A DNA stretch of 64,000 nt, taken from Halochromatium roseum. GTDB lineage: Bacteria; Pseudomonadota; Gammaproteobacteria; Chromatiales; Chromatiaceae. The notes below the pieces were generated by a model. The model saw only the letters and a list, made by a program, of their open reading frames with translations. It ran no database searches and was not told where the DNA came from. A program made the translations under genes and the position numbers. The stretch's first letter is position 1. Each line of letters begins with the position of its first letter. Of this stretch, positions 1,793 through 21,999 are shown in pieces. Location of the stretch: positions 186,001 to 250,000 of the forward strand of contig NZ_NHSH01000061.1 in the NCBI RefSeq assembly GCF_016653315.1, given 5' to 3'.

Positions 1793-1849
1793 CTGCTTAC
1801 TTCGTCAGTCATCAATCAGCTTAATGCTTGTAATCGCGAAGCCTGACTC

Positions 1850-5316: not shown

Positions 5317-5353
5317 CGAGACTCAGCATGTCGCACTCATCGGGAGATCAAAA

Positions 5354-6052
5354 GTGACCAACCACAACAAGACGACTTTGGGACCCCGATCGTCACTTGG
5401 GTTAGCAACAGCCATGATCGCACTCGCGGGTTTGTCGGGATGCGCCTTTGACAGCAAGTATCCGCCCGTGCCGCCGGATCAACGCTCCCTCAGCGCGCAG
5501 GAAAGTTATCTGTATGAGATTGCCCCTGGTGACGCTGTCAATATCTTTGTCTGGGCCTTCCCAGAACTCTCTGGCACTGTGCCCGTGCGGCCGGACGGTA
5601 TGCTAACAACGCCGCTGATAGAAGACATGCCCGCCAGCGGTAAGACCCCGTCTGAGTTGGCGCGTGACCTCGAAAAGGAATTGGCGCTATATGTTCGTTC
5701 GCCCATCGTCACAGTGATCGTCAATAATTTCGTCGGTCTACCTCAACAGCAGGTCAGGGTTGTCGGCGAGGCAATGGGAAGTTCTGGATCAGGTGGTCGT
5801 GGCGCTGGATCAGGCAGGGGGCCGGCAGCAGTACCCTTCAGAAAACACATGACATTGCTGGATCTCATGATTCAGGTGGGTGGCTTAACACCCTTTGCCG
5901 CTGGCAACAAGTCAGTATTAGTACGCTTTAACAACGGACAACCTGAGGAATATTCAGTTCGCATTGATGACCTCCTCCGGAAAGGCGACATGTCCGAGAA
6001 TGTCAGCCTTCTGCCTGGCGATATCCTTATCATACCCGAAGCCTGGTTCTAA
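5354..6052 (+). CDS. XrtA-system polysaccharide export lipoprotein (Wza/EpsE-like)
   Basis: Outer-membrane polysaccharide export protein. A signal peptide ends in the lipobox LSGC, followed by the Poly_export domain (YxIxPGDxxxI pattern with VWxxPELSG) and a SLBB-like half. A Gly/Ser-rich loop around 5780-5830 is an insertion between domains. An open frame reaches back to 5288 inside prsR. The GTG at 5354 is preferred because GGGAGA lies 6 bases upstream and it puts the charged n-region directly before the hydrophobic core. The product should form the outer-membrane channel for the polymer made with the downstream chain-length protein and kinase. Confidence 0.88.
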   Translation: MTNHNKTTLGPRSSLGLATAMIALAGLSGCAFDSKYPPVPPDQRSLSAQESYLYEIAPGDAVNIFVWAFPELSGTVPVRPDGMLTTPLIEDMPASGKTPSELARDLEKELALYVRSPIVTVIVNNFVGLPQQQVRVVGEAMGSSGSGGRGAGSGRGPAAVPFRKHMTLLDLMIQVGGLTPFAAGNKSVLVRFNNGQPEEYSVRIDDLLRKGDMSENVSLLPGDILIIPEAWF

Positions 6053-6110
6053 TCGCCGCAACTGAACTCACGACATCCATCACTCAGCTTAATTTTCAGG
6101 ATACTTCGCA

Positions 6111-7667
6111 TTGCTGCACGACCTCCTTGCAGAAATTTTTCAATACCTGAGAGGCGTATTGCGCTATCGCTGGGTAGCCCTCGGGCTCGCCTGGGTGATC
6201 GCCATTGCGGGTTGGGTCTATGTCTCAGCAATTCCAAACGAATATCGCGCTTCTGCTCGTTTATTCGTCGACACCCAAAGCGTATTGAGGCCACTTTTGA
6301 GAGGCCTCACCATCCAGCCTGATTTTGCCGAGCGGGTATCGCTGATGAGCAAAATGCTCCTGAGTCGGCCAAATCTGGAGAGGGCTATCCGCATGAGCGA
6401 CCTGGAGCTCACTGTCAATAGCCCCCGCGAAAAGGAAGAGCTACTGTCTCGGCTCAATACGAAAATCCGTATTAATGGCAACCGCAACGCTCCAATCTAT
6501 AATATCTCGTACGAAGATCAAGATCCCGAAAGTGCAACTCGCGTCGTTCAGGCTTTAGTGAACATTTTTATTGAAGAAGCCTTGGCGGGTGACCAAACAG
6601 CATCGACGACGGCGCAAAACTTTCTAGATCAGGAAATTGCAGCCTACGAGGCCGATCTTCGAGCATCTGAACTGCGCCTCGCAGACTTCAAGCGTAGGAA
6701 CGCCGGTTTACTTCCTGGAAATACTGGCTATTACGCAACCCTGGAAAGAGCTAGAGCTCAGCTCCGAGACGCTAGACTTGCATTAGAAGAGGCGATCCAA
6801 CGCAGAGATCAGCTTGTGCAGCAAATTCAAGCTGAAAACGAACGAGCTCGCGGAAACGCCGAAGCCCTAAATGACTCGTTGGCACTCGACCCGCAAGTCT
6901 CAGCGGCGCAGGCTCGACTCGATGATCTGCTGCTGCGTTACACTGAACGCCATCCTGACGTCCTCGAGTTGCAAAGACTGATCGCAGAGCTAAAACGTCG
7001 CTCTTCTCAACAGGCGAGAGCCAACGAAAATCAACCATCGAGTCTTGTTCAATCAACAACTGTTTACGGCAACTTACGGATCGCGCTGAATGAAGCAGAA
7101 GCTGACGTTGCATCACTTCAGGCGCGTGTTGACGAGTTTGAGAGCAGAGTCACCTCGCTTACAGAGAAAATCGACTCGATCCCAGAGATTGAGGCGGATC
7201 TCACGCAACTCACTCGAGAATACAACACGATTGCAAACCAACACTCTAAGCTACTTGAACGACGTGAATCAGCACGCCTATCTCAACAGGTGGAAAATTC
7301 AGTAGAGGGCATCAAATTCCGTGTAATTGACCCTCCTCTGGCGCCGAAGAAACCCTCTGCACCCAACCGCCTTTTGTTGGCTTTTGCTGTCTTGGTTGTC
7401 GCAATTGGCGGCGGTGCGGCAGCCGCGGTTGCGCTCGATCTGCTTCGCCCAATCTATGATGATCGACGTGTCCTTTATCGCACAACTGGATTGCCGGTTC
7501 TAGGTGTTGTCTCACTGATCCGAACGCCCCAAAAGCGCCGCCTTGAAAGAATTCTCTGGTTACCTTTCTTTCTACTCATCATGGGCTTAGTCATTGGATC
7601 GATGATTGTTGGCTCTGGATTAACTGCCGACTTCGTTTCAGAAGTTATTTCTCCAGTGATTATTTAA
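6111..7667 (+). CDS. XrtA-system chain length determinant (Wzz/EpsF-like)
   Basis: Inner-membrane polysaccharide co-polymerase of 518 residues. An N-terminal TM (about 22-40) precedes the Wzz domain with the ARLFVDTQSVLRPLLRG region. A long periplasmic coiled coil (about 160-390) follows, then a proline-rich PPLAPKKPSAPNR segment and C-terminal membrane helices. The start is a TTG at 6111 with CAGGAT 7 bases upstream; no ATG lies close to the first TM. It partners the tyrosine kinase 13 bp downstream, as in exosortase-associated EPS loci (TIGR03007-like). Confidence is high for the family and moderate for the rare start codon. Confidence 0.9.
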   Translation: MLHDLLAEIFQYLRGVLRYRWVALGLAWVIAIAGWVYVSAIPNEYRASARLFVDTQSVLRPLLRGLTIQPDFAERVSLMSKMLLSRPNLERAIRMSDLELTVNSPREKEELLSRLNTKIRINGNRNAPIYNISYEDQDPESATRVVQALVNIFIEEALAGDQTASTTAQNFLDQEIAAYEADLRASELRLADFKRRNAGLLPGNTGYYATLERARAQLRDARLALEEAIQRRDQLVQQIQAENERARGNAEALNDSLALDPQVSAAQARLDDLLLRYTERHPDVLELQRLIAELKRRSSQQARANENQPSSLVQSTTVYGNLRIALNEAEADVASLQARVDEFESRVTSLTEKIDSIPEIEADLTQLTREYNTIANQHSKLLERRESARLSQQVENSVEGIKFRVIDPPLAPKKPSAPNRLLLAFAVLVVAIGGGAAAAVALDLLRPIYDDRRVLYRTTGLPVLGVVSLIRTPQKRRLERILWLPFFLLIMGLVIGSMIVGSGLTADFVSEVISPVII

Positions 7668-7680
7668 ATTCCAGACCACT

Positions 7681-8622
7681 ATGAGTACCATTGAAAAAAG
7701 CCTTGAAAAACTCGCTGCCCAGCAGCGAGAGCGCCCGACCCTTACTGATCCGGTGGCGCAGCATCAGGAGACTTTAAAAAGGCCAGAAACTCGTTCTCCG
7801 CACATCCATACCAAATCGAGAACGGAAATTCATCATTTTCCCTGGAATGAACTCCGGAAACATGGCATTCTTACTCGCGATACTAAGCGCTCACAGCTCG
7901 CTGAAGAATACAGACAAATCAAGCGGCCGCTGTTGATGAATATTGACAAGAAGGGCGCTGATATTGTTGACAATGCCAATCTTATCTTAGTGACCAGCGC
8001 CCTACCCCGTGAAGGCAAGACCTTTAACGCCATAAACCTCGCGATGAGTATCGCCATGGAGCGCGATCGTACCGTACTCCTTATTGATGGTGACGTTGCC
8101 AAACCAACCGCCGCCAAACGCCTCGGCATCCAACAAGAGGCCGGGCTGCTAGACCTTGTCGACGACTCCAACACCAAGATTAACGATGTGCTGGTGAAAA
8201 CCGATTTGCCGAACCTTCGGGTTCTGCCATCTGGTCGGCCCCACGATCGAGCCACTGAGTTACTCGCGAGTGAGAAAATGGCACGGTTCATGTCCGAATT
8301 CTCAACGCGTTATCCAGACCGTGTCGTCATTTTTGACTCCCCTCCTCTATTATTGGCGAGCGAAACGGCTGTACTCAGCTCATGCGTCGGGCAGATCGTT
8401 ATGGTCGTTGCGGCTGAACAAACAAGTCGTCACACAGCAAACGAAGCCCTTGCTCTGCTCGATCCCGATAAGATCATTGGACTCCTACTCAATAAGTATC
8501 GGCCTAGCCTCGGCAATCGTTCCGGTTCAGGCTACGGTTACGGCTATGGCTACGGTTATGGACATGACCACCCAAGTCCAGATCCCGATATTGCCCAAAC
8601 CCCGCAACATCCAGCGGCTTAG
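7681..8622 (+). CDS. XrtA-system tyrosine autokinase (BY-kinase, CpsD-like)
   Basis: Cytoplasmic bacterial tyrosine kinase of 313 residues. Visible motifs are a Walker A-like SALPREGKT, Walker A' VLLIDGDVAKP and Walker B VVIFDSPPLL. The C-terminal tail has five Tyr-Gly pairs (nucleotides 8530-8559), the usual autophosphorylation cluster. These kinases act with Wzz-like proteins to control polymer length by cyclic autophosphorylation. The N-terminal ~100 residues are charged and linker-like. The TAG stop overlaps a GTG start of the next gene by one base. Confidence 0.9.
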   Translation: MSTIEKSLEKLAAQQRERPTLTDPVAQHQETLKRPETRSPHIHTKSRTEIHHFPWNELRKHGILTRDTKRSQLAEEYRQIKRPLLMNIDKKGADIVDNANLILVTSALPREGKTFNAINLAMSIAMERDRTVLLIDGDVAKPTAAKRLGIQQEAGLLDLVDDSNTKINDVLVKTDLPNLRVLPSGRPHDRATELLASEKMARFMSEFSTRYPDRVVIFDSPPLLLASETAVLSSCVGQIVMVVAAEQTSRHTANEALALLDPDKIIGLLLNKYRPSLGNRSGSGYGYGYGYGYGHDHPSPDPDIAQTPQHPAA

Positions 8623-10091
8623 TGGCAGCCCGATCGATCATGCACAGCTTCCCAATTTTCCATCGGTTCAGGACGACCTTTGTCGCGTTGTTCGCCTATA
8701 GTGGCATTGTAGGATCCTTCGCCTTCTGCAATGTGGCATCCGCGGCCGACTGGAATTTCTCGAAACAAGTGGCGTTAGACACAACCTTTAGTGACAATAT
8801 CAATCTCAGCGAGTCCAATAAAGAATCTGATGTTTTTGCTTCCCTGACCCCGGGCTTTGTCCTTCAAGGGACTGGGCGGCATCTTGACGTTAACCTCGCC
8901 TATGCTCCCCGACTTTTATATTATCTCTCTGAGTCAACTAATAACCGAGTCGATAATAATCTGCAAGCGAATGCTACAACACGGCTCTATGAAGACCGTT
9001 TATCGGTAGACTTCAGTGCCTCAGCCAGACAGACTTTCATCGATCCTTTCCAGGCGCGAGGCGATGCCGCCAACAATACGGACAATGTACAAACAACCTA
9101 TTCCTATGCTATTGCTCCACTGCTACGCACAAGTCTTGGCCGCTACGCAAATGCGTCACTAGGGCTTGAACAAAGTGGCATCTTTTACTCTGAGCAAGGG
9201 ACAGACAGTTACAGCTATGGCGCAAATTTTGAGCTGCGGTCTGACTCAAATTACTTTGGTCGCTTACTCTGGGGTCTGTTAGCGGAAACAGAACGAATTG
9301 AATACGATGAAGGTCACAATGAATTTTCGAGTTTTTCAGCTATTCTTGGATACCAACTGAGCCGCCGTCTCGCCGTAGACCTGTTCGCTGGTTATGAGAA
9401 TAATAGCTATGCATCTGCTAATGACACGCGCGGGTTTCTCTGGGGCGGCGGATTTTCCTGGACTCCAACGCCGCGCACATCGCTGCGTGCTGAGTTCGAG
9501 GAACACTACTTTGGGACCACATCTAGCGTCGAGTTTAGACACCGGCGGAGGCGCTCAGTATGGTCGGCGACTTATTCGAGAGAGCTAACAAGTGCTCGAA
9601 CTCAAGTTGATGCAATACCAGTCTTTAATTTTGAAACCCCCTTCGGCGACCCGACCATCCCAAATGTTACTCAGAATCAGATAATCGGAGTCGACAATGC
9701 GTTACCAAACTCGGATGTGTTCATTGCAGACCGCTTAAACGCAAGGTATGCGCTAGAAATGCGACGCGGCGTTTTGACGGCCAATGCTCGTTATGTCCAC
9801 CGTGATTTTAGTGGCTCTGATAATGACCAATCGGCCGTACAGCTTGGGGTTGACTATACCCACCAATTATCAGGTAAATTATCAGGCCTTGCTGCGTTGA
9901 ATTGGCGACAAACAGATCAATCAAGTTCGGTAATTTCAACTGATGCTGATCGTAACGAGCAACTAGCGCTGCGTACTGGCTTACGTAAAAATCTTAGCCA
10001 ACACTGGAATTTAGATTTTTCGTACCAACTTCAAAGCGGTGATGATTATACAGAAAATCGTGTCACATTCGGCATTGCTGCCGATTGGTAG
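8622..10091 (+). CDS. PEP-CTERM system-associated outer-membrane beta-barrel protein
   Basis: A 489-residue secreted protein with a signal peptide ending near NVASAADW. Alternating beta-strand segments rich in aromatic and polar residues continue to a terminal Trp (VTFGIAADW), typical of an outer-membrane barrel. It matches the TIGR03016-like family that sits beside exosortase EPS genes; the function is unproven, possibly a polymer export porin. Two starts are possible: GTG at 8622 overlapping the previous stop, or ATG at 8640 with a shorter n-region. Neither has a strong ribosome binding site, and translational coupling favours the first. Confidence 0.85.
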   Translation: MAARSIMHSFPIFHRFRTTFVALFAYSGIVGSFAFCNVASAADWNFSKQVALDTTFSDNINLSESNKESDVFASLTPGFVLQGTGRHLDVNLAYAPRLLYYLSESTNNRVDNNLQANATTRLYEDRLSVDFSASARQTFIDPFQARGDAANNTDNVQTTYSYAIAPLLRTSLGRYANASLGLEQSGIFYSEQGTDSYSYGANFELRSDSNYFGRLLWGLLAETERIEYDEGHNEFSSFSAILGYQLSRRLAVDLFAGYENNSYASANDTRGFLWGGGFSWTPTPRTSLRAEFEEHYFGTTSSVEFRHRRRRSVWSATYSRELTSARTQVDAIPVFNFETPFGDPTIPNVTQNQIIGVDNALPNSDVFIADRLNARYALEMRRGVLTANARYVHRDFSGSDNDQSAVQLGVDYTHQLSGKLSGLAALNWRQTDQSSSVISTDADRNEQLALRTGLRKNLSQHWNLDFSYQLQSGDDYTENRVTFGIAADW

Positions 10092-10129
10092 CCCTTGCGC
10101 TGCTGACAACAATAACCGAGTGTTATCAG

Positions 10130-11017
10130 ATGGCCCAAACATCAAAAATAATTAACGCTTTATCGATTGATGTAGAGGATTATTTTCAGGTATCTGCCTT
10201 TGAGGCCCATATCAATCGCGATCAATGGTCCCAGATTGACTGCCGAGTGGAACGTAACATTAATGAGATTCTCGCTCTACTCGACGAACACGATGTTAAA
10301 GCGACGTTTTTTACACTCGGATGGATCGCAGAACGCTTTCCGCGACTGATCAAGCAAATTTCTGATCAGGGCCATGAGATGGCGAGCCATGGCTATGACC
10401 ATGTACGTGTTACCAAACAATCTCGAAACGATTTTGCGCAGGACATTCAGCACACGAAGAAACTGCTTGAGGATATCTGCGCCTGCCCGATCACAGGTTA
10501 TCGGGCAGCGAGCTACTCCATCAATCGCACTAACCTTTGGGCACATGAGGAGATTTTGAACGCTGGCCATCGTTATAGCTCAAGCGTTTATCCAATCCAT
10601 CACGATCTCTACGGTATACCGGATGCACCGAGGTTCGCTTTCCGCCCGCTTCCTGGCACGGATCTAGTGGAAATTCCGGTTACTACACTCGAGATTGGCT
10701 CGCGACGCATACCCTGCGGTGGGGGTGGATTTTTCAGACTCTACCCTTATCCTGTTTCCCGTTGGATGATTAATCGGGTCAACGCTAAAGAACATCAGTC
10801 GGCAATTTTTTATTTTCATCCCTGGGAGATCGACGCAGAACAACCTCGAATTCCGGATCTCCCATGGAAGACGAGATTTCGACATTATCTGCACCTTGAT
10901 CAAACGAAGCAGAGGCTTGGCGCCTTGTTGCGCGACTTCAGTTGGGCACCCATGAACCAGGTTTACTTCGGCAAACAACAAAGCATCAACGACTTTCCAG
11001 TGTTTTCGCTCCAGTGA
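10130..11017 (+). CDS. XrtA-system polysaccharide deacetylase
   Basis: NodB-homology deacetylase of about 295 residues. Motifs are ALSIDVEDYFQV (catalytic/metal Asp region), the H-x3-H metal pair in SHGYDHVRV and GYRAASYSI (motif 3), with a DUF3473-like C-terminal part containing FYFHPWEID. The family (TIGR03006) occurs in exosortase-linked EPS clusters and should remove N-acetyl groups from the exported glycan. The ATG at 10130 is preferred; the frame runs back to 10085 inside the barrel gene but adds only non-homologous residues. It is the last gene of the operon before a hairpin at 11040-11060. Confidence 0.9.
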   Translation: MAQTSKIINALSIDVEDYFQVSAFEAHINRDQWSQIDCRVERNINEILALLDEHDVKATFFTLGWIAERFPRLIKQISDQGHEMASHGYDHVRVTKQSRNDFAQDIQHTKKLLEDICACPITGYRAASYSINRTNLWAHEEILNAGHRYSSSVYPIHHDLYGIPDAPRFAFRPLPGTDLVEIPVTTLEIGSRRIPCGGGGFFRLYPYPVSRWMINRVNAKEHQSAIFYFHPWEIDAEQPRIPDLPWKTRFRHYLHLDQTKQRLGALLRDFSWAPMNQVYFGKQQSINDFPVFSLQ

Positions 11018-12309: not shown

Positions 12310-12318
12310 GAGGCCTTG

Positions 12319-14598
12319 ATGAAGCCATTTTTCCTCTCAGGGCGCACCGCCCTGGCGATTCTGATCCTTGTGACGGTACTGGCCAACGGCGCACTCATGT
12401 TGATCCGTCTGGACAATGCGCCAGAGGCCTATTTTCCCGCCGACTCTCCGACCGTGCAGTTCGAGAACCAACTGCGGGAGCACTTTCCGCTCGATCAAGT
12501 TCTGGTCGCGTTGTTCGAAGATGAGCAGGCGACCCTGTGGCAAGACACCTTTCTAACCCGTTACTTCGCCCTGGCTGAGTCGCTGGAGGACGACCCAATG
12601 GTCGAGCGGGTGCTGTCGCTGGCCAATCAGGATCACATGCGTAGCACCGATGACGGCTTTGCCATCGAGCCCCTACTCGATCAGGCGCAAATGGAAAAGC
12701 TTGCTCAGGCCGAAGAGCGCCGAGACCGCGTGCTCAGCGACCGCTTTGCCGCCGGCTTGCTCGCAAGCGAGGACGGCCAGGCGCTGGCGCTAGTGGTGCG
12801 CCCGCGCGAGCTGCGCAACAGCCTGGAACGCTTGCAGATGGAAAACACCCTGCGCGACGCCATTAGCGCTCACCAGCTCGACGATCAGCTGACCGCCATC
12901 GCCGGTCAAATCGCCCTGGACGTGGCGCAACTGCGCGCCATGATCCACGACACCATGGTGCTAGTACCCAGCACCCTAGGGCTAGGATTAGTCATCATTT
13001 GGCTGATGTTCCGCCGCTGGCTCGCGGTCCTGGTCAGTGCACTGGTGATTGCCGCCGTGGTCAACGTCACCATTGCGCTGCTGATTCTGGCTGGCAAGCC
13101 TTATACCTTGATTTCCGCCATTCTCCCGCCTTTGATGTCGGCGCTCACCGTGGCCGCTTTGGTTCATTGGCTGAACGCTGTGGCGCTCGCCGCACGCCAG
13201 GGCCTAAGTGGCCCCGAGCGCGCGGAACGTGCCTACCGTCAGGTTGCCAAGCCAATCATCTTCGTCGCGTTGACCACCGGCGTTGGTCTGCTGTCGCTCA
13301 GCTTCAGTTCCATACAGCCCATCGCCGCTTTCGGACAGGTGGCCGCTGTCGGTATGCTGGTGCAAGCGGCCATCATGACCTTGTTCGTCCCGCCCATCTT
13401 TGCACGCTGGGATCACGGTAGTTGGAACCGGGGCCGCAAGCGTATCGCTTTCACCGACATGACGGTGCGCACCCTGCGCGCGATGAGCATGCGCCGACCC
13501 TTATGGGTGCTAGGTATCACTACCGCACTGCTGGCGCTTGGAGTGCCCCAAATCGCGCGCATTCAGACCGAAACCGATCTGCTGCGCTTCTTCCCGCCGG
13601 AGCACGCCATCACCCAATCGACCGAACGCATCGGTGAGCGGTTGGTCGGCGTCACCTCCTTAGAGCTGGTATACCAGGCCGATCAGCGCGACCGCTTTAA
13701 GCAACCCGAGGCGCTGCGGTCGATTCAATCCATGCAAGGCTGGCTCGATGCGCAGCCGGAGGTTGATCGCGCGTTGTCGATGGTCGATTTCGTTGAGGAA
13801 ATGCACCTGAACTTCCATGGCGGAGACCCGGCCTACCGCGCGTTGCCAGAGAGCCAAAACCTGATCGCCCAGTATCTACTGGTCTACGACGGCACCGATC
13901 TCTACGAGTTGGTCAATCGTGAGTTCGACCAGACCCGTCTGATCTTGAACCTCAATGTACGCGGCGCGCGTGCCATCAATGATCTGATTGCGCGCATCGA
14001 CGATCAGCTCGCCAGCCAAGACCTGGGCGATCTGCAGGTGCGTGTGGCCGGCTTTGGCCGCCTGTTCGCCGACCAAGAGGCTTTGCTGATCCAAGGCCAA
14101 ATTCGTGGCCTGGCCGCCGCCGTGGTCCTGATCGCGTTGCTGATGCTGATCCTATGGCGCTCCCCCGCTCAGATGCTCATCAGCATGATTCCCAACCTGG
14201 CGCCCATCGCGCTGATCTTCATCATCATGGGACTGCTTGGGGTATGGCTCGACATGGCCACTGCCATGATCGCCAGCGTCACCGTCGGCATCGCGGTCGA
14301 CGACACCATTCATCTGATGCACAGCTATCGCGGGCGCCTCGCCGCAGGCAGCCCTCCGGTCTGGGCGCTGGCGCGCGCCTACCAGCAAACCGGACGCGCC
14401 ATCGTCGTCACCACCCTGATTCTCGGCGGCCAGTTCCTGCTGATCGGCACCTCCGCCTTCAACCCATCCGCCGCCTTTGGACTCCTGACCGCTGTTGGCC
14501 TGGTCGCCGCGCTGCTCTTTGACCTTCTGGCGCTGCCGGCACTTTTATTGCTGACAGCGGGGCGGCCAAGAACCGCGCGCAAGCGAATCACCGCTTGA
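12319..14598 (+). CDS. MMPL/RND-superfamily transporter
   Basis: A 759-residue inner-membrane protein with the duplicated RND layout: TM1 (about 10-28), a periplasmic domain (about 35-215), a block of five TMs (about 220-370), then TM7, a second periplasmic domain and five more TMs. IAVDDTIHLMHSYR in the second TM block resembles the proton-relay region of MMPL exporters. The family moves lipids or other hydrophobic compounds; the substrate cannot be read here. The ATG at 12319 follows AGGAGG by 5 bases, beating the TTG at 12316. It is higher in GC than the accessory genes that follow, and no MFP or OMP partner is adjacent. Confidence 0.85.
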   Translation: MKPFFLSGRTALAILILVTVLANGALMLIRLDNAPEAYFPADSPTVQFENQLREHFPLDQVLVALFEDEQATLWQDTFLTRYFALAESLEDDPMVERVLSLANQDHMRSTDDGFAIEPLLDQAQMEKLAQAEERRDRVLSDRFAAGLLASEDGQALALVVRPRELRNSLERLQMENTLRDAISAHQLDDQLTAIAGQIALDVAQLRAMIHDTMVLVPSTLGLGLVIIWLMFRRWLAVLVSALVIAAVVNVTIALLILAGKPYTLISAILPPLMSALTVAALVHWLNAVALAARQGLSGPERAERAYRQVAKPIIFVALTTGVGLLSLSFSSIQPIAAFGQVAAVGMLVQAAIMTLFVPPIFARWDHGSWNRGRKRIAFTDMTVRTLRAMSMRRPLWVLGITTALLALGVPQIARIQTETDLLRFFPPEHAITQSTERIGERLVGVTSLELVYQADQRDRFKQPEALRSIQSMQGWLDAQPEVDRALSMVDFVEEMHLNFHGGDPAYRALPESQNLIAQYLLVYDGTDLYELVNREFDQTRLILNLNVRGARAINDLIARIDDQLASQDLGDLQVRVAGFGRLFADQEALLIQGQIRGLAAAVVLIALLMLILWRSPAQMLISMIPNLAPIALIFIIMGLLGVWLDMATAMIASVTVGIAVDDTIHLMHSYRGRLAAGSPPVWALARAYQQTGRAIVVTTLILGGQFLLIGTSAFNPSAAFGLLTAVGLVAALLFDLLALPALLLLTAGRPRTARKRITA

Positions 14599-15021: not shown

Positions 15022-15037
15022 TGGCACTATGCTTGCT
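15022..15037 (+). promoter_or_regulatory. Sigma-54 (-24/-12) promoter of PEP-CTERM gene 15153
   Basis: TGGCACTATGCTTGCT: a perfect TGGCAC and TTGCT with the required GG-N10-GC spacing. The predicted transcription start near 15047 gives a leader of about 105 nt with TGAGGAGA 7 bases before the ATG. Confidence 0.82.
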
Positions 15038-15152: not shown

Positions 15153-16085
15153 ATGACGAAGCAAACAACCAAAGTCGTGGGGCTGGCGCTAACAACTCTG
15201 CTCGGCTCGAGCGCTGTTCAGGCAGTCCCCTTTTTCATCGATGTGGGCTACGACTACGGCAACGTCGGCGGAAGCGTCGCTGATGGACCTGGCACCACTG
15301 GCTGGTTCGATAAGGCGGTGCTGACTTACTTCTCAAACACCACCATCACGGACGCCAATAACGATGGGATTTACAGCCCGGGTGATACCGTGGTTGGTAC
15401 CGGTGGCCTACTGAACGACCCCTCGAACACCGGTTACGGTAACAATTCACTGGGTTCTAATAGCGTGACAGGCTTTGGCCCTGAGGTAAGCTTTGACAAC
15501 CCGGGTGGCCCGGACACCAACCGCTACGGCTTTCCAAACTGGACGCTGTCGTTCGGCTGGAATGACCTGACCGGCGTTGTCAATGCCAGCGGCGGTATCA
15601 CCTACAATGGCGGCACCATCAGCCTGAATCTCTGGGACTCCAACTCCGGCATTGCTGGTCAGGAAATCATGAAAATCGAGGTTTCTGGCGGGGGGGTCAA
15701 TGCCATCGGCCAGAGCTTGAACCTGGCCGGCAGGGTTGACTTCACCGGCCTGGATTTAAACCAGACGATCGGCAGTTCCACCCTCGGTGATCTGTTCAAC
15801 ATCGGTGGCGGCTCATTTGGCGATCTTTGGCAGGCTGGAGACACTGAGATCTTCGCCAACAGCGACCAAAACACACAGCCTTATCAGTTCTTTGATCTGA
15901 CCGAAACAGTGACGCCATTTGGGACGGTGCTGACCTTCGATAACGGGCCAGGTACAGTCGCCTATTTGGCAGGCGAACATGAAGGATCACTCGTCTTCGA
16001 GATACCCGAACCAGCATCCCTTGCCTTGCTTGGCGTGGGCTTGCTCGGATTCGGCGCCCTCGGTCGGAGAATGTCGGCCAAGTAG
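15153..16085 (+). CDS. PEP-CTERM sorting-domain secreted protein
   Basis: A 310-residue exported protein of unknown function. The signal peptide ends at SAVQAVPFF. The mature part is rich in Gly, Asn and Asp, low in charge and lacks Cys. It ends with a classic PEP-CTERM tail: IPEPASLALLGVGLLGFGALGRR, that is, the PEP motif, a hydrophobic helix and a basic end. Exosortase (XrtA) cleaves such tails at the inner membrane, and the proteins are typically tied to exopolysaccharide and floc formation. A strong ribosome binding site (TGAGGAGA), a sigma-54 promoter and a downstream terminator make it a single-gene unit, so PrsR/RpoN control is likely. Confidence 0.88.
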   Translation: MTKQTTKVVGLALTTLLGSSAVQAVPFFIDVGYDYGNVGGSVADGPGTTGWFDKAVLTYFSNTTITDANNDGIYSPGDTVVGTGGLLNDPSNTGYGNNSLGSNSVTGFGPEVSFDNPGGPDTNRYGFPNWTLSFGWNDLTGVVNASGGITYNGGTISLNLWDSNSGIAGQEIMKIEVSGGGVNAIGQSLNLAGRVDFTGLDLNQTIGSSTLGDLFNIGGGSFGDLWQAGDTEIFANSDQNTQPYQFFDLTETVTPFGTVLTFDNGPGTVAYLAGEHEGSLVFEIPEPASLALLGVGLLGFGALGRRMSAK

Positions 16086-16152: not shown

Positions 16153-16186
16153 AAAGGCGCCGCAACCCTGGGGCGCCTTTTTTTTT
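16153..16186. terminator. Rho-independent terminator
   Basis: Stem AAAGGCGCC/GGCGCCTTT followed by a run of nine T in total, 68 bases after the PEP-CTERM gene stop. The A-rich left flank means it can also act on the convergent ThiF-like gene ending at 16189. Confidence 0.9.
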
Positions 16187-16188
16187 GA

Positions 16189-17055
16189 TCAGCCCAACAG
16201 TAGGCGCCTGATATACCAAAACATCATCCGTTGCAAAGGGTGAGCGTTGCCCCAGGGACGGTAGGTCTTGATAAGCTTATTGCGATAAGCATCGAAATGC
16301 AGCCCATGCGGCACCGTGACCACATCGCCGCGTCGAAGCAGGAACTTCACTGCATTGGTGCAGGCAACCCCGGCGGCAAGTTCAATACCAATCGCTGTTG
16401 ATGGCACCTTCTTCTTAAACAGATTAACCGAGCGGCGGTCGACCAGATAATGCCGCTGCTGCATCGAAGGGGATACACCGACGATGAATTTCAAAATCTG
16501 GTCCTCGAACCCGAAGCCATCGAGGCGAAAATACTCCTCGAAGCTCATTCCCTTCGGGTCGAAAGCCAGCATCGAGGTACCCATGCCCATCGGCGCTGCA
16601 GTCACAGCCGGAATGTCGCGCTCATGACAGCGAGCAAAGACTTTCCGGCGAATATCGAGGGAAAAAATGTCGAGGCTGTCCATGTACAGATCAGCCTCGT
16701 CGAGAAACTCGTCGATATTGTCCAAAGTCAGCCCATGAGGCATCAGTTTCAATTCGGCTTCCGGATTAATGTCGCGTACCTGTTCCGCCATCACATCCAG
16801 CTTGGGCTTACCCATGGTCGAAGCCACCGCGCCTGCCTGCCGGTTGATATTAGCCCACTCGAAGGTATCCAGATCGGTAATGGTGAATCGGCTCACCCCG
16901 AGTCGAGCCAGTGTGATCAGATGGCTACCGCCAACCCCACCAAGGCCGCCAATGGCTACACGGCATTCGCGCAAGCGCGCCTGCTCATGCTCAGTAAACC
17001 AACCAATGTTGCGTGAAAATGCGACATCGTAGTCAAATGGGTTTGGTGTTGGCAT
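16189..17055 (-). CDS. ThiF/MoeB/HesA-family adenylyltransferase (E1-like)
   Basis: A 288-residue protein with an E1-type Rossmann adenylation fold. The nucleotide-binding loop is GLGGVGGS (about 37-44), the Asp that holds ATP ribose is in TDLDTFEWANINRQ, which also supplies the NxxR arginine, and the Asp pair in MDSLDIF corresponds to the Mg/ATP site. The paired zinc CxxC motifs and an obvious catalytic Cys loop of ThiF/MoeB are not seen. No ThiS/MoaD/ubiquitin-like gene is nearby. It is divergent from an FeeM-like acyltransferase 137 bp away, and AAAGGAAAC precedes its ATG. It may activate a carboxylate for the neighbouring acyltransferase pathway (inference). Confidence 0.85.
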   Translation of the reverse strand: MPTPNPFDYDVAFSRNIGWFTEHEQARLRECRVAIGGLGGVGGSHLITLARLGVSRFTITDLDTFEWANINRQAGAVASTMGKPKLDVMAEQVRDINPEAELKLMPHGLTLDNIDEFLDEADLYMDSLDIFSLDIRRKVFARCHERDIPAVTAAPMGMGTSMLAFDPKGMSFEEYFRLDGFGFEDQILKFIVGVSPSMQQRHYLVDRRSVNLFKKKVPSTAIGIELAAGVACTNAVKFLLRRGDVVTVPHGLHFDAYRNKLIKTYRPWGNAHPLQRMMFWYIRRLLLG

Positions 17056-17192
17056 AAGATGTTTCCTTTAGCAAGTGACGCAGATGGTTTGACCGGCCGG
17101 CTGAATTTCAGGTGCCATCCGAGTGGCAGCCCTTGATTGAACACAAAGCCGTCACCTGCTTAATAACGAAATTCCAGTCTGGGTAGCTGTAC

Positions 17193-17885
17193 ATGGTAAA
17201 GATCAAGATTGCTTGCTGTAAAGAGGACATGGACCACATCCTTTGGCTACGCCACAAAGTCTATGTTGAGGAAGAAGGCCGCTACGGCGGGTCGTTGTCG
17301 TCGCATGAGTGCATTATGGACCGCTACGACCATATTCCAAAAGTCGCGCATATCCTAATTCAAGACGACAACGAGCCCGTTGGCTGTATCCGTGTGAATG
17401 CTGAAACCGGTTTCGGGCTGCCCATCAATGACCATTTCGACTATCGACCCTATCTCGACGGCATGATCTCGCAACAGTTCCAGAGGCCAGGCCGATCAAC
17501 GTTAATGGCGTCAGTCAGCATGTTGGCGGTGCGGCAGCAGTGGCGCCGAAAACGACAGGTTTCACGCGAATTGTACCGTGCTACCGCCATGGTGCTGCAA
17601 TCTTGGCAGGTCAGCCACGTCATTGCTCTGGTCAGTTTGCAGACGGTATCCCTTTACGGCCGGATGGGTTTTTTACCAATCGCTGGGCGTATCTGGTTGC
17701 CGGACGTGCAAGACCATGTCATTCCAATCATGGCCGAAGCACAGGTTTGTTACGATTGGGCTTTTAGCAAACAGGCCAATTTGATCGCGACACCAGTGCA
17801 ACGCATGCGCTCGTTTATTCCTGCCAGGCTGGAGCCCAGGCTGGAGTCGCACAGCCAGCAAGAAGTCAGGGCCAGGTTCGGTTAA
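17193..17885 (+). CDS. N-acyl amino acid synthase FeeM-like GNAT acyltransferase
   Basis: A 230-residue acyltransferase of the FeeM/autoinducer-synthase-like GNAT group. The start is WLRHKVYVEEEGRYGG; a central strand, VGCIRVNAETGFGLPINDH, precedes a region with an acyl-donor-binding look and LVSLQTVSLYGRMGF near the C-terminus. Relatives join long-chain acyl groups from acyl-ACP to amino acids or amines. It belongs to the same broad superfamily as the exosortase-associated acyltransferase at 20209-20952 but is clearly diverged. A trypsin-like PEP-CTERM protease gene follows after 34 bp, likely in the same operon. No sigma-54 site was found upstream. The substrate is unknown. Confidence 0.78.
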   Translation: MVKIKIACCKEDMDHILWLRHKVYVEEEGRYGGSLSSHECIMDRYDHIPKVAHILIQDDNEPVGCIRVNAETGFGLPINDHFDYRPYLDGMISQQFQRPGRSTLMASVSMLAVRQQWRRKRQVSRELYRATAMVLQSWQVSHVIALVSLQTVSLYGRMGFLPIAGRIWLPDVQDHVIPIMAEAQVCYDWAFSKQANLIATPVQRMRSFIPARLEPRLESHSQQEVRARFG

Positions 17886-17919
17886 CCTTCACGATCATTG
17901 CGTTTTAGGAGTACCTCTC

Positions 17920-18870
17920 ATGTACAGTCGATTTTCAATGGCTGTTGGCCTTAGTCTCGTAGGTTGTTCTACCCTGCTTGGATACGAAACAGCTACGGCA
18001 GGCGTCATCAGGCACGACAGAACGGATGACTTGTACAAAAATCTTGCTGCCGAGGAAAGCTACTCCGGCGTCGGCGACATGTTAATTACCCGAACCGGCG
18101 CAACCTACCGGTGTTCAGGCACTTTGATCGGTTCCAGTTGGGTACTGACTGCCGCGCACTGTATTGATGGAGAAGACATTACAGGAGGCGTCACCTTCGA
18201 CGTTGGAGGCCAAATCTACAACGGCGGGCAACGTATCGTTCACGAAAATTGGGATGACGATGCATGGTCAGGATGGGACATCGCGCTTCTGGAACTCACC
18301 AGCGAGGTCAGTGGAGTAACCATTGCTGAGCTATATGCCGGAACCTCAGAGCTGGGGATGGTTGGAACAAATGTGGGTTTTGGTTCAACTGGTGTCGGGA
18401 ATGAGGGATACATGAGTGGAACATCCGGGACGAAACGCGCTGGACAAAATGTTGTTGATGAGACGAACTCGAATCAACAGATCTTATTACAAGACTTCGA
18501 TAACCCTGACGATAGTACAGACAACTGGTTTGGGGACCCGAATCCGCTCAACCTCGAATATCTGATCGCTCCAGGTGACAGTGGCGGTGGTTTGTTTATC
18601 GAAGAAGCGGGCAATACGTACCTGGCTGGCGTTCATTCCTTTTTTGGATGGGATAATCTCACTGATCGTCCTGGTACCGCTGGCTATGGTCATATTGCCG
18701 GATCAACACGGGTTTCGAGTTTCACCAGCTGGATTTCCAACATCATGTCCCCCAACGTAACCGCAGTCCCAGAACCCGGCCCCCTGTCGCTAATGCTAAT
18801 CGGCGGGGTCCTGTTAGGTTTGTGGCCAAGAAACAAAAACCCGCAACGGCGGAAGCACATTGCGGGTTAG
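17920..18870 (+). CDS. Secreted trypsin-like serine protease with PEP-CTERM tail
   Basis: A 316-residue exported S1-family protease. The signal peptide spans about residues 1-27; LVGC within it resembles a lipobox but is followed by a standard cleavage region, ATAGVIRH. The catalytic triad is visible: His in LTAAHC, Asp in WDIALLEL and Ser in PGDSGGGL. The C-terminus is VPEPGPLSLMLIGGVLLGLW followed by a long basic tail, a PEP-CTERM signal. TAGGAG precedes the ATG. It would be anchored or released at the cell surface and could process other surface proteins. Codons near the stop form half of a perfect inverted repeat (18838-18868). Confidence 0.9.
   Translation: MYSRFSMAVGLSLVGCSTLLGYETATAGVIRHDRTDDLYKNLAAEESYSGVGDMLITRTGATYRCSGTLIGSSWVLTAAHCIDGEDITGGVTFDVGGQIYNGGQRIVHENWDDDAWSGWDIALLELTSEVSGVTIAELYAGTSELGMVGTNVGFGSTGVGNEGYMSGTSGTKRAGQNVVDETNSNQQILLQDFDNPDDSTDNWFGDPNPLNLEYLIAPGDSGGGLFIEEAGNTYLAGVHSFFGWDNLTDRPGTAGYGHIAGSTRVSSFTSWISNIMSPNVTAVPEPGPLSLMLIGGVLLGLWPRNKNPQRRKHIAG
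18838..18868. repeat. Perfect inverted repeat overlapping the protease stop
   Basis: AACCCGCAA at 18838-18846 and TTGCGGGTT at 18860-18868 form a 9-bp stem with a 13-base loop; the TAG stop begins in the second arm. There is no T run after it, so it is a transcript-end hairpin rather than a standard terminator. It separates two convergent PEP-CTERM genes. Confidence 0.55.
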
Positions 18871-18918: not shown

Positions 18919-19929
18919 TCAAGCGCGCCTTAAGCTGCGCCTTGTGTAGAGACCGGCGAAGGCCGCGGCCATCAGCAAAAGCGTTGATGGTTCCGGAATC
19001 TCGTTATCGGTGAGTACGGTGGGTGGATCGTGTGCCCAGATCCCAACGTGAGACAAATCTTGATTGTTTATGACTCCTGTATTCCACGACCCCGTAAAAT
19101 AGTAGACAGTATCACCGAGACTGATGTCGAGTCCATCGTCAATCAGGTCCCAAAAATTGAAATCAAAAACAGCCCAGCTTGGATCACTTTTATTACTGCC
19201 TTTAAGCACGAACGTTAGATGATCGAAAAGTGCTGGCCTACCAAGCGCTGCTGTCGCAGCATCAATGGCTGTAGGATCAACGAACAAGGACCAATCACCA
19301 CTATTGTTGAATGATAAGTCGATAAAATCATTCAAGTTAAACACTGTGCCATCGGCCGCGGTAATAGAGCTGTAGCTATCGTCGCTGATCCACTCTCCTG
19401 AATTATCATTTTCAGAGTTTGCCAAGGAAATCCATCCAACCGTCTCTTCATCGACCCAAGAGTCGTTAGAATTGGTAAGAAACAGGTTCGGATCGAGGTA
19501 ATAGGTTGTTTTCGTGCCTTTTTTATTATGTTGGAGAGTTTCTCCATTTAGTAATCCTTCATACAGCAAGCCGGTGTTCGGGCTTGGATCTTTCCCCCAG
19601 TCGTTATCGGGTGTCTCGATACCGATAAAACTCGTTGAATTTATCGGATAACCCAAACCCGTCAATGGATCGTCGCTAATTATAAAATCCCCGTTTGTGT
19701 CAATGCCTAATATCGGGAATATTCCAGTGATTTGGACATCCGATGCTTCCAAACCCGTGCTGTTAATCACAACCGGCGTGGCGTCATCGAAATTACCTTC
19801 GAACAATGTTCCGAAACTGGCCCCGCTAAACAGCATAGACCCGATGGCAGTGATAAGGATGGTTGATCTCATAGAAAATCTCGCTAAAGATGGTCTAGTA
19901 GTGAACATGTGTGTGGGTGGGGTTGCCAT
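18919..19929 (-). CDS. PEP-CTERM sorting-domain secreted protein
   Basis: Exported protein of 317-336 residues, function unknown. The mature region is rich in Asp, Asn, Ser and aromatics, with calcium-site-like DTNGDFIISDD. The C-terminal tail IPEPSTLLLMAAAFAGLYTRRS is a clear PEP-CTERM signal. The start is uncertain: ATG 19929 (weak GAG 6 bases upstream) gives a long n-region, while ATG 19872 gives a textbook signal peptide (MRSTILITAIGSMLFSGASFG). Both lie downstream of the sigma-54 start predicted near 19992. A cluster of five phased TGACA words lies further upstream. Confidence 0.83.
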   Translation of the reverse strand: MATPPTHMFTTRPSLARFSMRSTILITAIGSMLFSGASFGTLFEGNFDDATPVVINSTGLEASDVQITGIFPILGIDTNGDFIISDDPLTGLGYPINSTSFIGIETPDNDWGKDPSPNTGLLYEGLLNGETLQHNKKGTKTTYYLDPNLFLTNSNDSWVDEETVGWISLANSENDNSGEWISDDSYSSITAADGTVFNLNDFIDLSFNNSGDWSLFVDPTAIDAATAALGRPALFDHLTFVLKGSNKSDPSWAVFDFNFWDLIDDGLDISLGDTVYYFTGSWNTGVINNQDLSHVGIWAHDPPTVLTDNEIPEPSTLLLMAAAFAGLYTRRSLRRA

Positions 19930-20001: not shown

Positions 20002-20017
20002 AGCAAAAAACTTGCCA
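20002..20017 (-). promoter_or_regulatory. Sigma-54 promoter of PEP-CTERM gene 18919-19929
   Basis: The minus strand reads TGGCAAGTTTTTTGCT: TGGCA and TTGCT with GG-N10-GC spacing; the T stretch before the -12 element is common in strong sigma-54 promoters. Predicted start near 19992. Confidence 0.8.
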
Positions 20018-20208: not shown

Positions 20209-20952
20209 TCAGGGATCATTCAGCCCAATGCCTAAATCCTCGGCAATCGCGTCTAGCAGTGCACGCAGTGGCGCCCCGAGATGCTCGAAGAGCATGGAAC
20301 GAGACAAGTAAAAAGGCGCTCGCGCACCGTGAAACTCCACCACTTCACCGATCTGCTCGAAGAAGATACCGCCATAATGCAAGTGTCGAGCTAGTCGTGG
20401 CTCCATCATCGCGTAGACTGCAGATAGACCATGCGACAACCCAACCGTTGCGGCGGCCAGATAGAGTCCTAGCGCGATGTGCGGGAAGCGGCGGCGATCG
20501 GTCTGCGTCCACTGGAAGACGTCCGGTCCACCATCGGGTGTGTTGCGCTCTCCTGGTCGGCGCCGGAACCGCTCGGTCAGCGCGAGACGCGAGATTTCTC
20601 CATACATCCCTTTCGGCACCATGAGCGGACTGTGTTCAGAGTTATACTGGCGGCTGTCGTAGTGGGCCGTCAGCGGTAGACAAGGCTCGGGGCTGTCAGG
20701 CCGGGTAGTCACCAGGCGCACGGTACCCGCATCTAGGCCTGAGGGACGATGGATAAGGATGCAATGCAGCGAGGCATCGTCGAACTCGTCCTTCTCCAGG
20801 CCGTCCGGAAAACGATCCGGACTCTCCCAACCGAGTTCCTGGCAATAGACCTGGTACCTGAGTTGATAGGCCCGCCGGCGCAACTCGTCGGTGTCGGCAT
20901 AGAGCACTTGGAAATATTCGCGGTAGGGTGTGACCAAGTCGGTATCGGACAT
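20209..20952 (-). CDS. PEP-CTERM/exosortase system-associated acyltransferase
   Basis: A 247-residue protein matching the exosortase-associated acyltransferase family (TIGR03694-like), a branch of the FeeM/autoinducer synthase GNAT fold. LRRRAYQLRYQVYCQELGWE at the N-terminus, DAGTVRLV in the central strand, EISRLALTERFRRR, and a C-terminal half with HLHYGGIFFEQIGE are the recognisable blocks. The family co-occurs with exosortase/PEP-CTERM systems and is predicted to attach an acyl chain to an amino group of an unknown small molecule or protein. It stands alone on the minus strand between two PEP-CTERM genes. A 17-bp dyad box lies 320 bp upstream with only a weak sigma-54-like site between. 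Confidence 0.88.
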   Translation of the reverse strand: MSDTDLVTPYREYFQVLYADTDELRRRAYQLRYQVYCQELGWESPDRFPDGLEKDEFDDASLHCILIHRPSGLDAGTVRLVTTRPDSPEPCLPLTAHYDSRQYNSEHSPLMVPKGMYGEISRLALTERFRRRPGERNTPDGGPDVFQWTQTDRRRFPHIALGLYLAAATVGLSHGLSAVYAMMEPRLARHLHYGGIFFEQIGEVVEFHGARAPFYLSRSMLFEHLGAPLRALLDAIAEDLGIGLNDP

Positions 20953-21390: not shown

Positions 21391-21999
21391 TTAAGCAGAC
21401 TTACGACGACGAGCCGCGCCTAAGCCGATCAAGCCCATGCCGAGGAGGGCAAGGGTGGTGGGTTCCGGAACAGGGTTCGAAAAAGGAGGCGTACCCCAAG
21501 AGAAGGAATACGATATGGAACCACCAACAGACTGAGCGGAGAAGGCAATAGCTGCAGTTTGGGTGTCATAAAAATTGGTAGTATCTCGGAATTCACCGGT
21601 ACCGTAGAGATTCATAAAGTTTGGTTCGCTTACATTACGAACCAGCGTATCCAGGTCAAACTGGAATCTATTTCCAGCCCCCCAGGTCAAAAAGTTGGTA
21701 ATTGGATTAAAGGTTGTGATCGCCAAGGGTAGACTAATGGTACCTGCAGAGGGAACACTAAAGTCGGCATTTGTAAAGAAATCATTATCTTCGCCAAGGT
21801 ATGTTGGATCAATACCCGTCACTCCAAAGAGCAAAGAAGCGGAAGTAATTGAATCTGCAGTGTTCAAATTACCACCCGTGATGGTTACAGGCCCGTTAAG
21901 ACCTGCTGCAGCAAAGGTTCCATTCAGAGGAACCGCAGTCGCGCTTAAGGGTAACAAAGCGCTAACAGCCAATAGACCGGAAATCAGATAGTTTTTCAT
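21391..21999 (-). CDS. PEP-CTERM sorting-domain secreted protein
   Basis: A 202-residue exported protein of unknown function. Signal peptide MKNYLISGLLAVSALLPLSATA, a mature part rich in Asn, Thr and Phe without Cys, and the tail VPEPTTLALLGMGLIGLGAARRR (PEP motif, helix, basic end). It is transcribed alone: a sigma-54 promoter sits about 90 bp upstream, three 17-bp boxes lie beyond it, and a strong terminator follows. The predicted leader is about 78 nt. The combination suggests PrsR/RpoN-controlled expression and export to the cell surface through an exosortase encoded elsewhere. Confidence 0.88.
   Translation of the reverse strand: MKNYLISGLLAVSALLPLSATAVPLNGTFAAAGLNGPVTITGGNLNTADSITSASLLFGVTGIDPTYLGEDNDFFTNADFSVPSAGTISLPLAITTFNPITNFLTWGAGNRFQFDLDTLVRNVSEPNFMNLYGTGEFRDTTNFYDTQTAAIAFSAQSVGGSISYSFSWGTPPFSNPVPEPTTLALLGMGLIGLGAARRRKSA

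What the first reader, a model, noticed from the sequence alone, without database searches (positions are those of the whole stretch)
16189..18870. ThiF-like enzyme divergent from an FeeM-like acyltransferase plus a surface protease
An E1-like adenylyltransferase without zinc CxxC motifs and without a ubiquitin-like partner lies back to back with an N-acyl amino acid synthase-like gene, followed by a PEP-CTERM trypsin. Together with the exosortase-associated acyltransferase nearby, this looks like an uncharacterised lipid-amide or peptide-modification unit tied to surface protein export.
Basis: inference. Interest (0 to 1): 0.7.

Follow-up and report, generated by a model that had tools for sequence, protein, structure and literature searches.

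The report
Lipid-activating enzyme paired with surface protein
A bacterial enzyme that probably activates fatty-acid-tagged amino acids sits in a biofilm-polysaccharide gene cluster and is inherited together with one particular surface protein, which suggests that an unrecognised branch of a known lipid pathway serves the bacterial cell surface.

Summary
The three genes are real, at the stated coordinates. The ThiF-like protein belongs to NCBIfam PRK08223, which also takes in the ThiF half of a ThiF-oxidase fusion like those of acyl-oxazolone pathways (OxzAB, TrzAS). [quoted passage not shown] the trypsin is not conserved in 48 other loci. New here: (1) in 369 genomes the ThiF tracks exosortase (38 of 40) and TIGR03694 (30 of 40, against 17 of 329); among ThiF-less genomes TIGR03694 does not track exosortase (6 of 89 against 11 of 240). 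(2) The window's ThiF lies in a supported 16-member clade in which no locus shows the flavin desaturase. (3) That clade is matched in 7 of 7 surveyed genomes by a distinct PEP-CTERM protein (window 15153-16085), usually next door; one further genome has a weak match. Best reading: a desaturase-less branch of oxazolone-type chemistry built into the exosortase/exopolysaccharide system and paired with a dedicated surface protein. No chemistry was tested; product and acceptor are inferred. New variant of a known kind.

The parts
371..11017 (+). Exosortase-type exopolysaccharide cluster: ExeA-like 371-1792, PrsK-like 1850-3943, PrsR-like 3934-5316, Wza-like export 5288-6052, chain-length 6111-7667, CpsD-like kinase 7681-8622, outer-membrane-like 8622-10091, polysaccharide deacetylase-like 10085-11017
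   Evidence: ORFs; each falls in a homologue cluster shared with other ThiF loci. Names are recalled labels, except that the representative of the Wza cluster was scanned (Pfam Poly_export)
12316..14598 (+). MMPL/HAE3-type RND transporter, candidate lipid exporter
   Evidence: Pfam MMPL 118.6 bits; the family lies within 10 kb of the ThiF in 16 of 49 loci, window included
15022..15037 (+). sigma-54 -24/-12 promoter site before the PEP-CTERM gene
   Evidence: exact match TGGCAC-N5-TTGCT; at most 2 mismatches in 13 of 15 upstream regions of this gene family and of its L057 relative
15153..16085 (+). PEP-CTERM surface protein distantly like PepA ('PEPa'), partner of the ThiF clade
   Evidence: Pfam PEP-CTERM 27.5 bits; genome co-occurrence; adjacency
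16155..16187 (.). terminator-like hairpin (GGCGCC, 10-nt loop, GGCGCC, run of T) between the convergent PEPa and ThiF genes
   Evidence: read by eye from the sequence; not flagged by the scan
16189..17055 (-). ThiF-like adenylyltransferase (PRK08223), predicted to activate the carboxylate of an N-acyl amino acid
   Evidence: active-site residues; tree; fold
17056..17192 (.). shared upstream region of the ThiF and FeeM genes
   Evidence: coordinates; only weak promoter-like matches
17193..17885 (+). FeeM-type N-acyl amino acid synthase-like acyltransferase
   Evidence: Pfam FeeM 64.3 bits; 34-38% identical relatives in L065, L069, L084, L086
17920..18870 (+). PEP-CTERM trypsin-like protease, 34 bp after FeeM; local, not conserved
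   Evidence: Pfam Trypsin 66.5 bits; no blastp match in 48 other loci
18919..19929 (-). further PEP-CTERM protein, sigma-54-like site at 20002-20017
   Evidence: Pfam PEP-CTERM 26.3 bits; site with 1 mismatch
20209..20952 (-). TIGR03694 PEP-CTERM/exosortase-associated acyltransferase, second candidate N-acyl amino acid synthase
   Evidence: 226.7 bits, cut-off 111.95
21391..21999 (-). further PEP-CTERM protein
   Evidence: Pfam PEP-CTERM 32.4 bits

Best explanation
The locus is a desaturase-less branch of acyl-oxazolone-type lipid chemistry, built into the exosortase/exopolysaccharide system. [quoted passage not shown] Step 2 (inferred from homology, conserved active site and genomic pairing): the ThiF-like enzyme adenylates the free carboxylate with ATP, and the N-acyl oxygen closes on it to give a saturated acyl-oxazolone (azlactone), or an activated acyl-adenylate is left. 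Step 3 (shown at the loci, within the limits of the search): the flavin desaturase of Oxz/Tyz/Trz is missing. Step 4 (inferred): the MMPL transporter exports the lipid, and its fate is tied to the PEP-CTERM protein encoded next door, as ligand, modification or anchor.
For: Family: PRK08223 holds the window protein (403.8 bits) and the ThiF half of a ThiF-oxidase fusion (451.6 bits), whose oxidase half matches the Rv1355c (TrzS) family at 165.7 bits (one fusion tested). N69, N71, R72, Q73, K85, D126, D129 and R136 are kept in at least 96% of 49 sequences. ThiF with exosortase 38 of 40 against 89 of 329; with TIGR03694 30 of 40 against 17 of 329. Synthase-like gene within 10 kb in 35 of 49 loci, within 500 bp in 17 (two weak hits dropped). 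Clade of 16 (bootstrap 97, SH-aLRT 89; the bootstrap had not fully settled), no oxidase in any of the 16 loci by profile. PEPa: strong profile match in exactly the 7 survey genomes with the clade ThiF; with a profile built only from other genomes, the same 7 of 80; absent from 7 same-genus genomes. Literature, passages: OxzAB/TyzACB/TrzAS chemistry (PMC10404671, PMC12856293); [quoted passage not shown]
Against: No product, substrate or binding was tested. In 4 of 16 clade loci no synthase-like gene was found within 10 kb (L019-L022; a weak hit in L019 was dropped). PEPa was not found in L019 and L024 (20 kb seen). The sigma-54 site is shared by PEPa genes but not by ThiF genes, so no co-regulation was seen. 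Export by MMPL rests on neighbourhood only, and MMPL is in 6 of 16 clade loci. Oxidase absence is not confined to the clade: the label changes about ten times on the tree. On the ThiF tree the PEPa link is one origin, not many.
Confidence: 0.55

Rival explanations
1. Ordinary oxazolone pathway with the desaturase supplied in trans by an unlinked flavin enzyme.
For: The window's genome has one distant oxidase-like gene on another contig (L028: 29% identity over query residues 3-117, E 6e-8; Pfam Nitroreductase 43.7 bits). One relative carries a very divergent oxidase beside its ThiF (L069, 21%).
Against: None of the 16 clade loci carries one by profile; none of the 7 survey genomes of the clade had a hit at E 1e-10 in the whole genome. 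L028 stands beside an ORF that looks like an acetyltransferase by eye, not beside a ThiF.
Confidence: 0.13
2. E1-like protein modification: the ThiF activates a protein or peptide C-terminus, for example of PEPa, not a lipid.
For: Complete genome pairing with PEPa in the survey; fold like MoeB, ThiF, MccB and AclA.
Against: PEPa C-termini are not conserved and none of 14 ends in GG; no small ORF ending in GG in the window region and no small-ORF family near 49 ThiF genes beyond pairs of closely related loci; no invariant Cys; relatives with a fused oxidase point to small-molecule substrates.
Confidence: 0.12
3. The FeeM-trypsin pair is a separate insertion; the ThiF works only with the TIGR03694 enzyme and the head-to-head arrangement is incidental.
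For: FeeM-type gene adjacent in only 3 of 49 loci; no trypsin relative in 48 other loci; TIGR03694 is 3.2 kb away in the window.
Against: Adjacency also in L065 and L086, whose ThiF proteins lie in different parts of the tree. Both enzymes have the same kind of expected product, so this changes the partner, not the chemistry.
Confidence: 0.12
4. Hitch-hiking: the ThiF lies in the exopolysaccharide region without a functional link to it.
For: No experiment links them; upstream regions of ThiF and PEPa genes differ; genome counts were not corrected for relatedness.
Against: Exosortase co-occurrence 38 of 40 against 89 of 329, TIGR03694 tracks the ThiF and not exosortase alone, and the PEPa pairing holds in seven families, six of which have surveyed members lacking both or carrying another ThiF without PEPa.
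Confidence: 0.08

Closest known systems
OxzAB acyl-oxazolone pathway (Pseudoalteromonas rubra), as told in PMC10404671 and PMC12856293; the original paper was not seen
   Same: N-acyltransferase together with a ThiF-family enzyme; the window's ThiF shares its profile family with a ThiF-oxidase fusion
   Different: No oxidase fused or adjacent here; lies in an exosortase-type cluster with a dedicated PEP-CTERM protein. OxzB itself was not compared
TyzACB / TrzAS (Mycobacterium tuberculosis; PMC10404671, PMC12856293, passages)
   Same: Acyltransferase gene adjacent on the opposite strand (tyzA beside tyzCB); an MmpL gene as neighbour (mmpL9), as MMPL here
   Different: tyzC and trzS supply a flavin desaturase; exosortase is not mentioned in either paper; the window's ThiF scores only 60.3 bits against the Rv1355c model (cut-off 476)
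Stieleriacine / kyonggic / thalassotalic acid clusters (PMC12479983, PMC7293339, passages)
   Same: N-acyl amino acid synthase plus ThiF; a PEP-CTERM gene was noted inside the stieleriacine cluster
   Different: They carry a nitroreductase; products are dehydrotyrosine lipids; the role of the ThiF there is called enigmatic
N-acyl amino acid synthases linked to PEP-CTERM/exosortase (Craig, Cherry and Brady 2011; only title seen in reference lists and others' summaries)
   Same: Acyltransferase-exosortase link
   Different: Here the link runs through the ThiF: without it the acyltransferase does not track exosortase
PepA, flocculation PEP-CTERM protein (PMC9850573, passages)
   Same: PEPa aligns over nearly full length with the PepA model (35-72 bits in 4 proteins); sigma-54 site upstream; pepA lies beside prsT
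   Different: All 4 are below the model's cut-off of 80; paired with a ThiF

Membership tests
Acyl-oxazolone (Oxz/Tyz/Trz) pathway | N-acyl amino acid synthase-type acyltransferase gene beside the ThiF | tested here: met
   FeeM 64.3 bits, 137 bp away; TIGR03694 3.2 kb away. Family membership only, activity untested
Acyl-oxazolone (Oxz/Tyz/Trz) pathway | ThiF-type cyclase with intact adenylation site, same family as a ThiF-oxidase fusion | tested here: met
   PRK08223 403.8 bits, fusion L073 451.6; residues. OxzB and TyzB sequences themselves were not at hand
Acyl-oxazolone (Oxz/Tyz/Trz) pathway | Flavin-dependent oxidase (nitroreductase superfamily) fused or adjacent | tested here: not met
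   none in the window locus or in 15 other clade loci by profile; only a distant unlinked gene, L028
Acyl-oxazolone (Oxz/Tyz/Trz) pathway | Acyl-oxazolone product | not testable with these tools
   needs mass spectrometry
MoeB, ThiF (thiamine), TcdA housekeeping enzymes | score over the curated family cut-offs | tested here: not met
   MoeB 73.6 against 266, ThiF 86.6 against 275.25 and 80.0 against 159, TcdA 69.4 against 304
Ubiquitin-like conjugation (Bub, CBASS Cap2) | ubiquitin-like or E2 partner gene | tested here: not met
   no GG-ending small ORF in 14.0-22.5 kb; none of the neighbour families that were scanned is of this kind; the 25 PADLOC matches shown are partial, to E1-E2 models
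RiPP ThiF-like enzymes (MccB, PaaA) | conserved precursor peptide gene | tested here: not met
   388 small intergenic ORFs near 49 ThiF genes: no family beyond pairs of closely related loci
FeeM N-acyl amino acid synthase | Pfam FeeM over cut-off | tested here: met
   64.3 against 27
FeeM N-acyl amino acid synthase | sequence match to a solved FeeM-type structure | tested here: inconclusive
   phmmer gave one irrelevant hit at E 0.43
Flocculation protein PepA (NF033554) | score over cut-off 80 | tested here: not met
   35.4 window; 39.5, 64.3, 71.5 in three relatives
PEP-CTERM/exosortase system | exosortase in the genome and PEP-CTERM tails | tested here: met
   Exosortase_EpsH 239.6 bits on the same contig, 81 kb away; PEP-CTERM motifs

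The most novel reading that the evidence does not exclude
The ThiF-activated N-acyl amino acid, lacking the desaturation that makes oxazolones stable, is a reactive acyl donor that is exported and covalently joined to the paired PEP-CTERM protein or to the exopolysaccharide, so that it is the lipid anchor or cross-link of this part of the exosortase system. That would explain why exosortase genomes carry N-acyl amino acid synthases.
Probability: 0.12. Interest if true: 0.9.

Novelty: new variant of a known kind. Interest (0 to 1): 0.62.

Why it matters
[quoted passage not shown] PMC7293339 and PMC4897644 (passages) still call the function open. Here the statistical link runs through a ThiF-like activating enzyme, which names a reaction that can be tested. 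The desaturase-less ThiF clade and its matched surface protein give a two-gene system, in named strains (Azoarcus indigens DSM 12121, Rhodoferax, Rheinheimera, Aliiglaciecola), for asking what those lipids do at the cell surface and how PEP-CTERM proteins are held there. In print: the searches 'oxazolone'+'exosortase' and 'oxazolone'+'PEP-CTERM' returned one and the same paper, which speaks of methanobactin and cites Craig 2011. 'ThiF'+'PEP-CTERM' returned 3 papers: one lists ThiF-type genes before wza in a table without comment in the passage seen, two are unrelated. So no joint treatment was found in the held library by these searches.

Tried and rejected
Rejected: 'no nitroreductase in the genome'. 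The whole-genome search with PF00881 found nothing, but a query with a real ThiF-linked oxidase found L028, whose protein does match PF00881; the genome search had missed it. Likewise G377 counts as oxidase-free in the 369-genome search but has a 21% identical oxidase 3 bp from its ThiF. So 'oxidase-free' is claimed for loci by profile, and for genomes only at E 1e-10.

Rejected: the trypsin as part of the unit (no match in 48 other loci). Rejected: RiPP or ubiquitin-like reading.

Led nowhere: structure of PEPa (mean pLDDT 48.3), so no fold search was made; P0002 against solved structures; search for a paper on AclA, the best fold match (none), so its reaction is unknown to me; sigma-70 and terminator scan, at the level of shuffles. 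The sigma-54 pattern with up to 2 mismatches is not enriched over the window as a whole (40 matches, shuffles 33.7, sd 5.8); one such match (17102-17117, minus) lies 47 bp before the ThiF gene but lacks the -12 GC and was not counted. Defence-library matches of the ThiF are partial (25 of 29 shown, all to E1-E2 models).

Dropped before counts: FeeM-profile hits at 32-36 bits in L019 and L072 (recount). ThiF genomes found but not looked at in neighbourhood: G232, G309, G360, G386 (of 40; all four have an oxidase) and G010, G018, G019, G025 (seen only with flanks of up to 1.5 kb). Rows left out of the careful tree as long or outlying: L059, L060, L072, L080 (present in the quick tree, with the same 16-row clade). 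Locus L065 is only 8.5 kb long.

Circularity: profile A1 holds PEPa from the window and five other survey genomes; A4 holds none of them, hence, whose 40 exosortase genomes without ThiF are the first 40 by number of 89. The 7-of-7 figures ignore relatedness; on the ThiF tree the pairing is one clade. The 11 named loci came from a search that finds close relatives only, which enriches the window's clade among the 49 loci.
Full report
WHAT IS THERE. The ThiF-like gene (16189-17055, minus), the FeeM-like gene (17193-17885, plus) and the PEP-CTERM trypsin (17920-18870, plus) are as described. The window's first 11 kb hold a PEP-CTERM-type exopolysaccharide cluster (most gene names recalled). An MMPL transporter (12316-14598), a PEP-CTERM protein with an exact sigma-54 site (15153-16085, site 15022-15037) and a TIGR03694 acyltransferase (20209-20952) complete the surroundings. 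An exosortase lies on the same contig, 81 kb away.

THE ENZYME. It passes the curated PRK08223 model (403.8 against 266 bits) and fails the MoeB, ThiF and TcdA models by far. The residues N69, N71, R72, Q73, K85, D126, D129 and R136 are kept in at least 96% of 49 relatives; D126 and D129 align with the D-x-x-D of the genome's best-scoring ThiF-family paralogue, which I take for a MoeB (the catalytic role of this Asp in MoeB is recalled; PMC12856293 reports loss of cyclase activity for D217A in TrzS, an Asp of the ThiF adenylation motif). No Cys is invariant. The AlphaFold model (mean pLDDT 83.3) is closest to AclA 9egb (Z 25.2, rmsd 2.4, 232 residues), MoeB 1jw9 (24.6, 2.4, 221) and ThiF 1zfn (24.4, 2.6, 226), which are tied.

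KNOWN CHEMISTRY. In OxzAB, TyzACB and TrzAS an acyltransferase makes an N-acyl amino acid, a ThiF homologue cyclises it with ATP to an oxazolone, and a flavin oxidase desaturates it (PMC10404671 and PMC12856293: abstracts, passages, one section of the latter). PRK08223 also takes in the ThiF half of the one ThiF-oxidase fusion that I scanned (L073, 451.6 bits), whose oxidase half matches the TrzS model Rv1355c at 165.7 bits.

GENOME SURVEY. In the same 369 genomes of the class: ThiF 40 (E 1e-30), exosortase 127, TIGR03694 over its cut-off 47, oxidase at E 1e-10 25, of which 24 have the ThiF. Lists were copied by hand into. ThiF genomes with exosortase: 38 of 40, against 89 of 329. ThiF genomes with TIGR03694: 30 of 40, against 17 of 329. 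Among exosortase genomes TIGR03694 is in 28 of 38 with the ThiF and 6 of 89 without (Fisher p 3e-14); among ThiF-less genomes it is in 6 of 89 with exosortase and 11 of 240 without (p 0.41). So the acyltransferase named for exosortase follows the ThiF. Genomes were not corrected for relatedness.

NEIGHBOURHOODS. 49 loci were compared (window, 11 named loci, 37 regions). Shared gene clusters, loci of 49: PrsT 26, TIGR03694-like acyltransferases 18 and 17 (two clusters), other exopolysaccharide genes 9-18, MMPL 16, ABC-transporter genes 13. By profile, a synthase-like gene lies within 10 kb in 35 of 49 (12 of 16 in the clade below, 23 of 33 outside) and within 500 bp in 17 (4 and 13), two weak hits dropped. 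PEP-CTERM genes of any kind: 20 of 36 lie within 500 bp of the ThiF or oxidase gene; random placement gives 2.2 on average, at most 8 in 2000 runs.

THE CLADE. In the careful tree of 45 ThiF sequences the window's protein falls in a clade of 16 (bootstrap 97, SH-aLRT 89; the program calls its bootstrap values rough), none of which has an oxidase at its locus by profile; the next branch, L083, has one. The label has changed about ten times over the tree, so oxidase absence is not confined to this clade. The 16 are 7 survey genomes (including the window's) and 9 named loci (two Azoarcus, Pelomonas, Rhodoferax, a soil MAG, Methylibium, Aliiglaciecola, Chromatocurvus, Rheinheimera); for the latter only about 20 kb were seen. 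Most of the other 33 carry Cys at 224 (25) and 227 (27); in the clade these are Ile and Ala in 16 of 16.

THE PAIRED SURFACE PROTEIN. The PEP-CTERM protein at 15153-16085 has clade-specific relatives: 14 genes in 13 of the 16 loci with ectodomain scores of 223-322 bits, then L057 at 48 bits and L025 at 16. It lies within 730 bp of the ThiF in 12 of those 13 (2.9 kb in L023), in several orientations. In 369 genomes its profile hits 8: the 7 with the clade ThiF strongly, and G043 weakly, beside a ThiF of another branch. A profile from other genomes only hits the same 7 of 80 genomes (40 with any ThiF, 40 with exosortase and no ThiF). In G291 both genes lie within 0.4 kb of contig ends, so they may adjoin. 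In six of the seven families involved a surveyed family-mate lacks both or has another ThiF without this protein. In the window's genus the profile hits 1 of 8 genomes, its own, and of the seven others only G002 has a ThiF at E 1e-30, 37% identical and outside the clade; so the pair seems to have been gained or lost together. PEPa aligns with the flocculation protein PepA (35-72 bits, cut-off 80). In Aquincola, overexpressed PepA raised cell-bound exopolysaccharide and restored flocs to an rpoN1 mutant, and ran as three bands; loss of pepA alone was not picked up in the screen (PMC9850573, passages). Sigma-54 sites with at most 2 mismatches precede 13 of 15 genes of this kind (L057 included; two Azoarcus copies are nearly identical) but only 1 of 16 ThiF genes; Haft 2006 reported such sites before PEP-CTERM genes (PMC1569441, passages).

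HOW IT PROBABLY WORKS. Shown here: gene order, family membership, conserved active site, co-occurrence, clade, missing oxidase at the loci. Inferred: N-acylation by FeeM or TIGR03694, activation and perhaps cyclisation by the ThiF, export by MMPL (for mmpL9 beside the tyz genes the same idea is raised in PMC10404671), and a role at the cell surface with PEPa. [quoted passage not shown]

VERDICT. By the missing oxidase it is not filed as a member of the oxazolone pathway; it works like its first half. New variant of a known kind.

Noticed in passing
L028 805-1974 (G000:C39): Nitroreductase/Acg-like oxidase in the window's genome, missed by the whole-genome PF00881 search but over the Pfam cut-off as a protein.
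   Followed up: partly
L084 5542-6783, L086 10681-11910: FeeM-type acyltransferases with a C-terminal cyclic-nucleotide-binding domain; the window's copy (230 aa) lacks it. The copies in L065 and L069 are also over 400 aa long but were not scanned.
   Followed up: partly
L024, L057-L062, L065, L068, L071: Three-gene block of LolA-like protein, SPOR/Wzi-like protein and MMPL near the ThiF; in other loci an ABC transporter with a DUF1302 protein is there instead. They look like alternative lipid export systems.
   Followed up: partly
window 11076-11504 and 11719-12165: Two PilZ-like genes in tandem; the second matches Pfam PilZ at 42.1 bits, the first was not scanned. A 66% identical relative of the second lies in same-genus locus L072.
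   Followed up: no
window 20002-20017: sigma-54-like site with 1 mismatch upstream of the PEP-CTERM gene 18919-19929.
   Followed up: no
L023, L024, L026, L070, L083: A serine-protease-like gene recurs near the ThiF in 5 loci (cluster 24); it has no blastp match to the window's trypsin. Its name is a guess from the sequence.
   Followed up: no
ThiF residues 224 and 227 (window protein numbering): Most ThiF relatives outside the clade have Cys at both places (a CxxC), lost in 16 of 16 clade members, of which 15 have Cys at 232.
   Followed up: no
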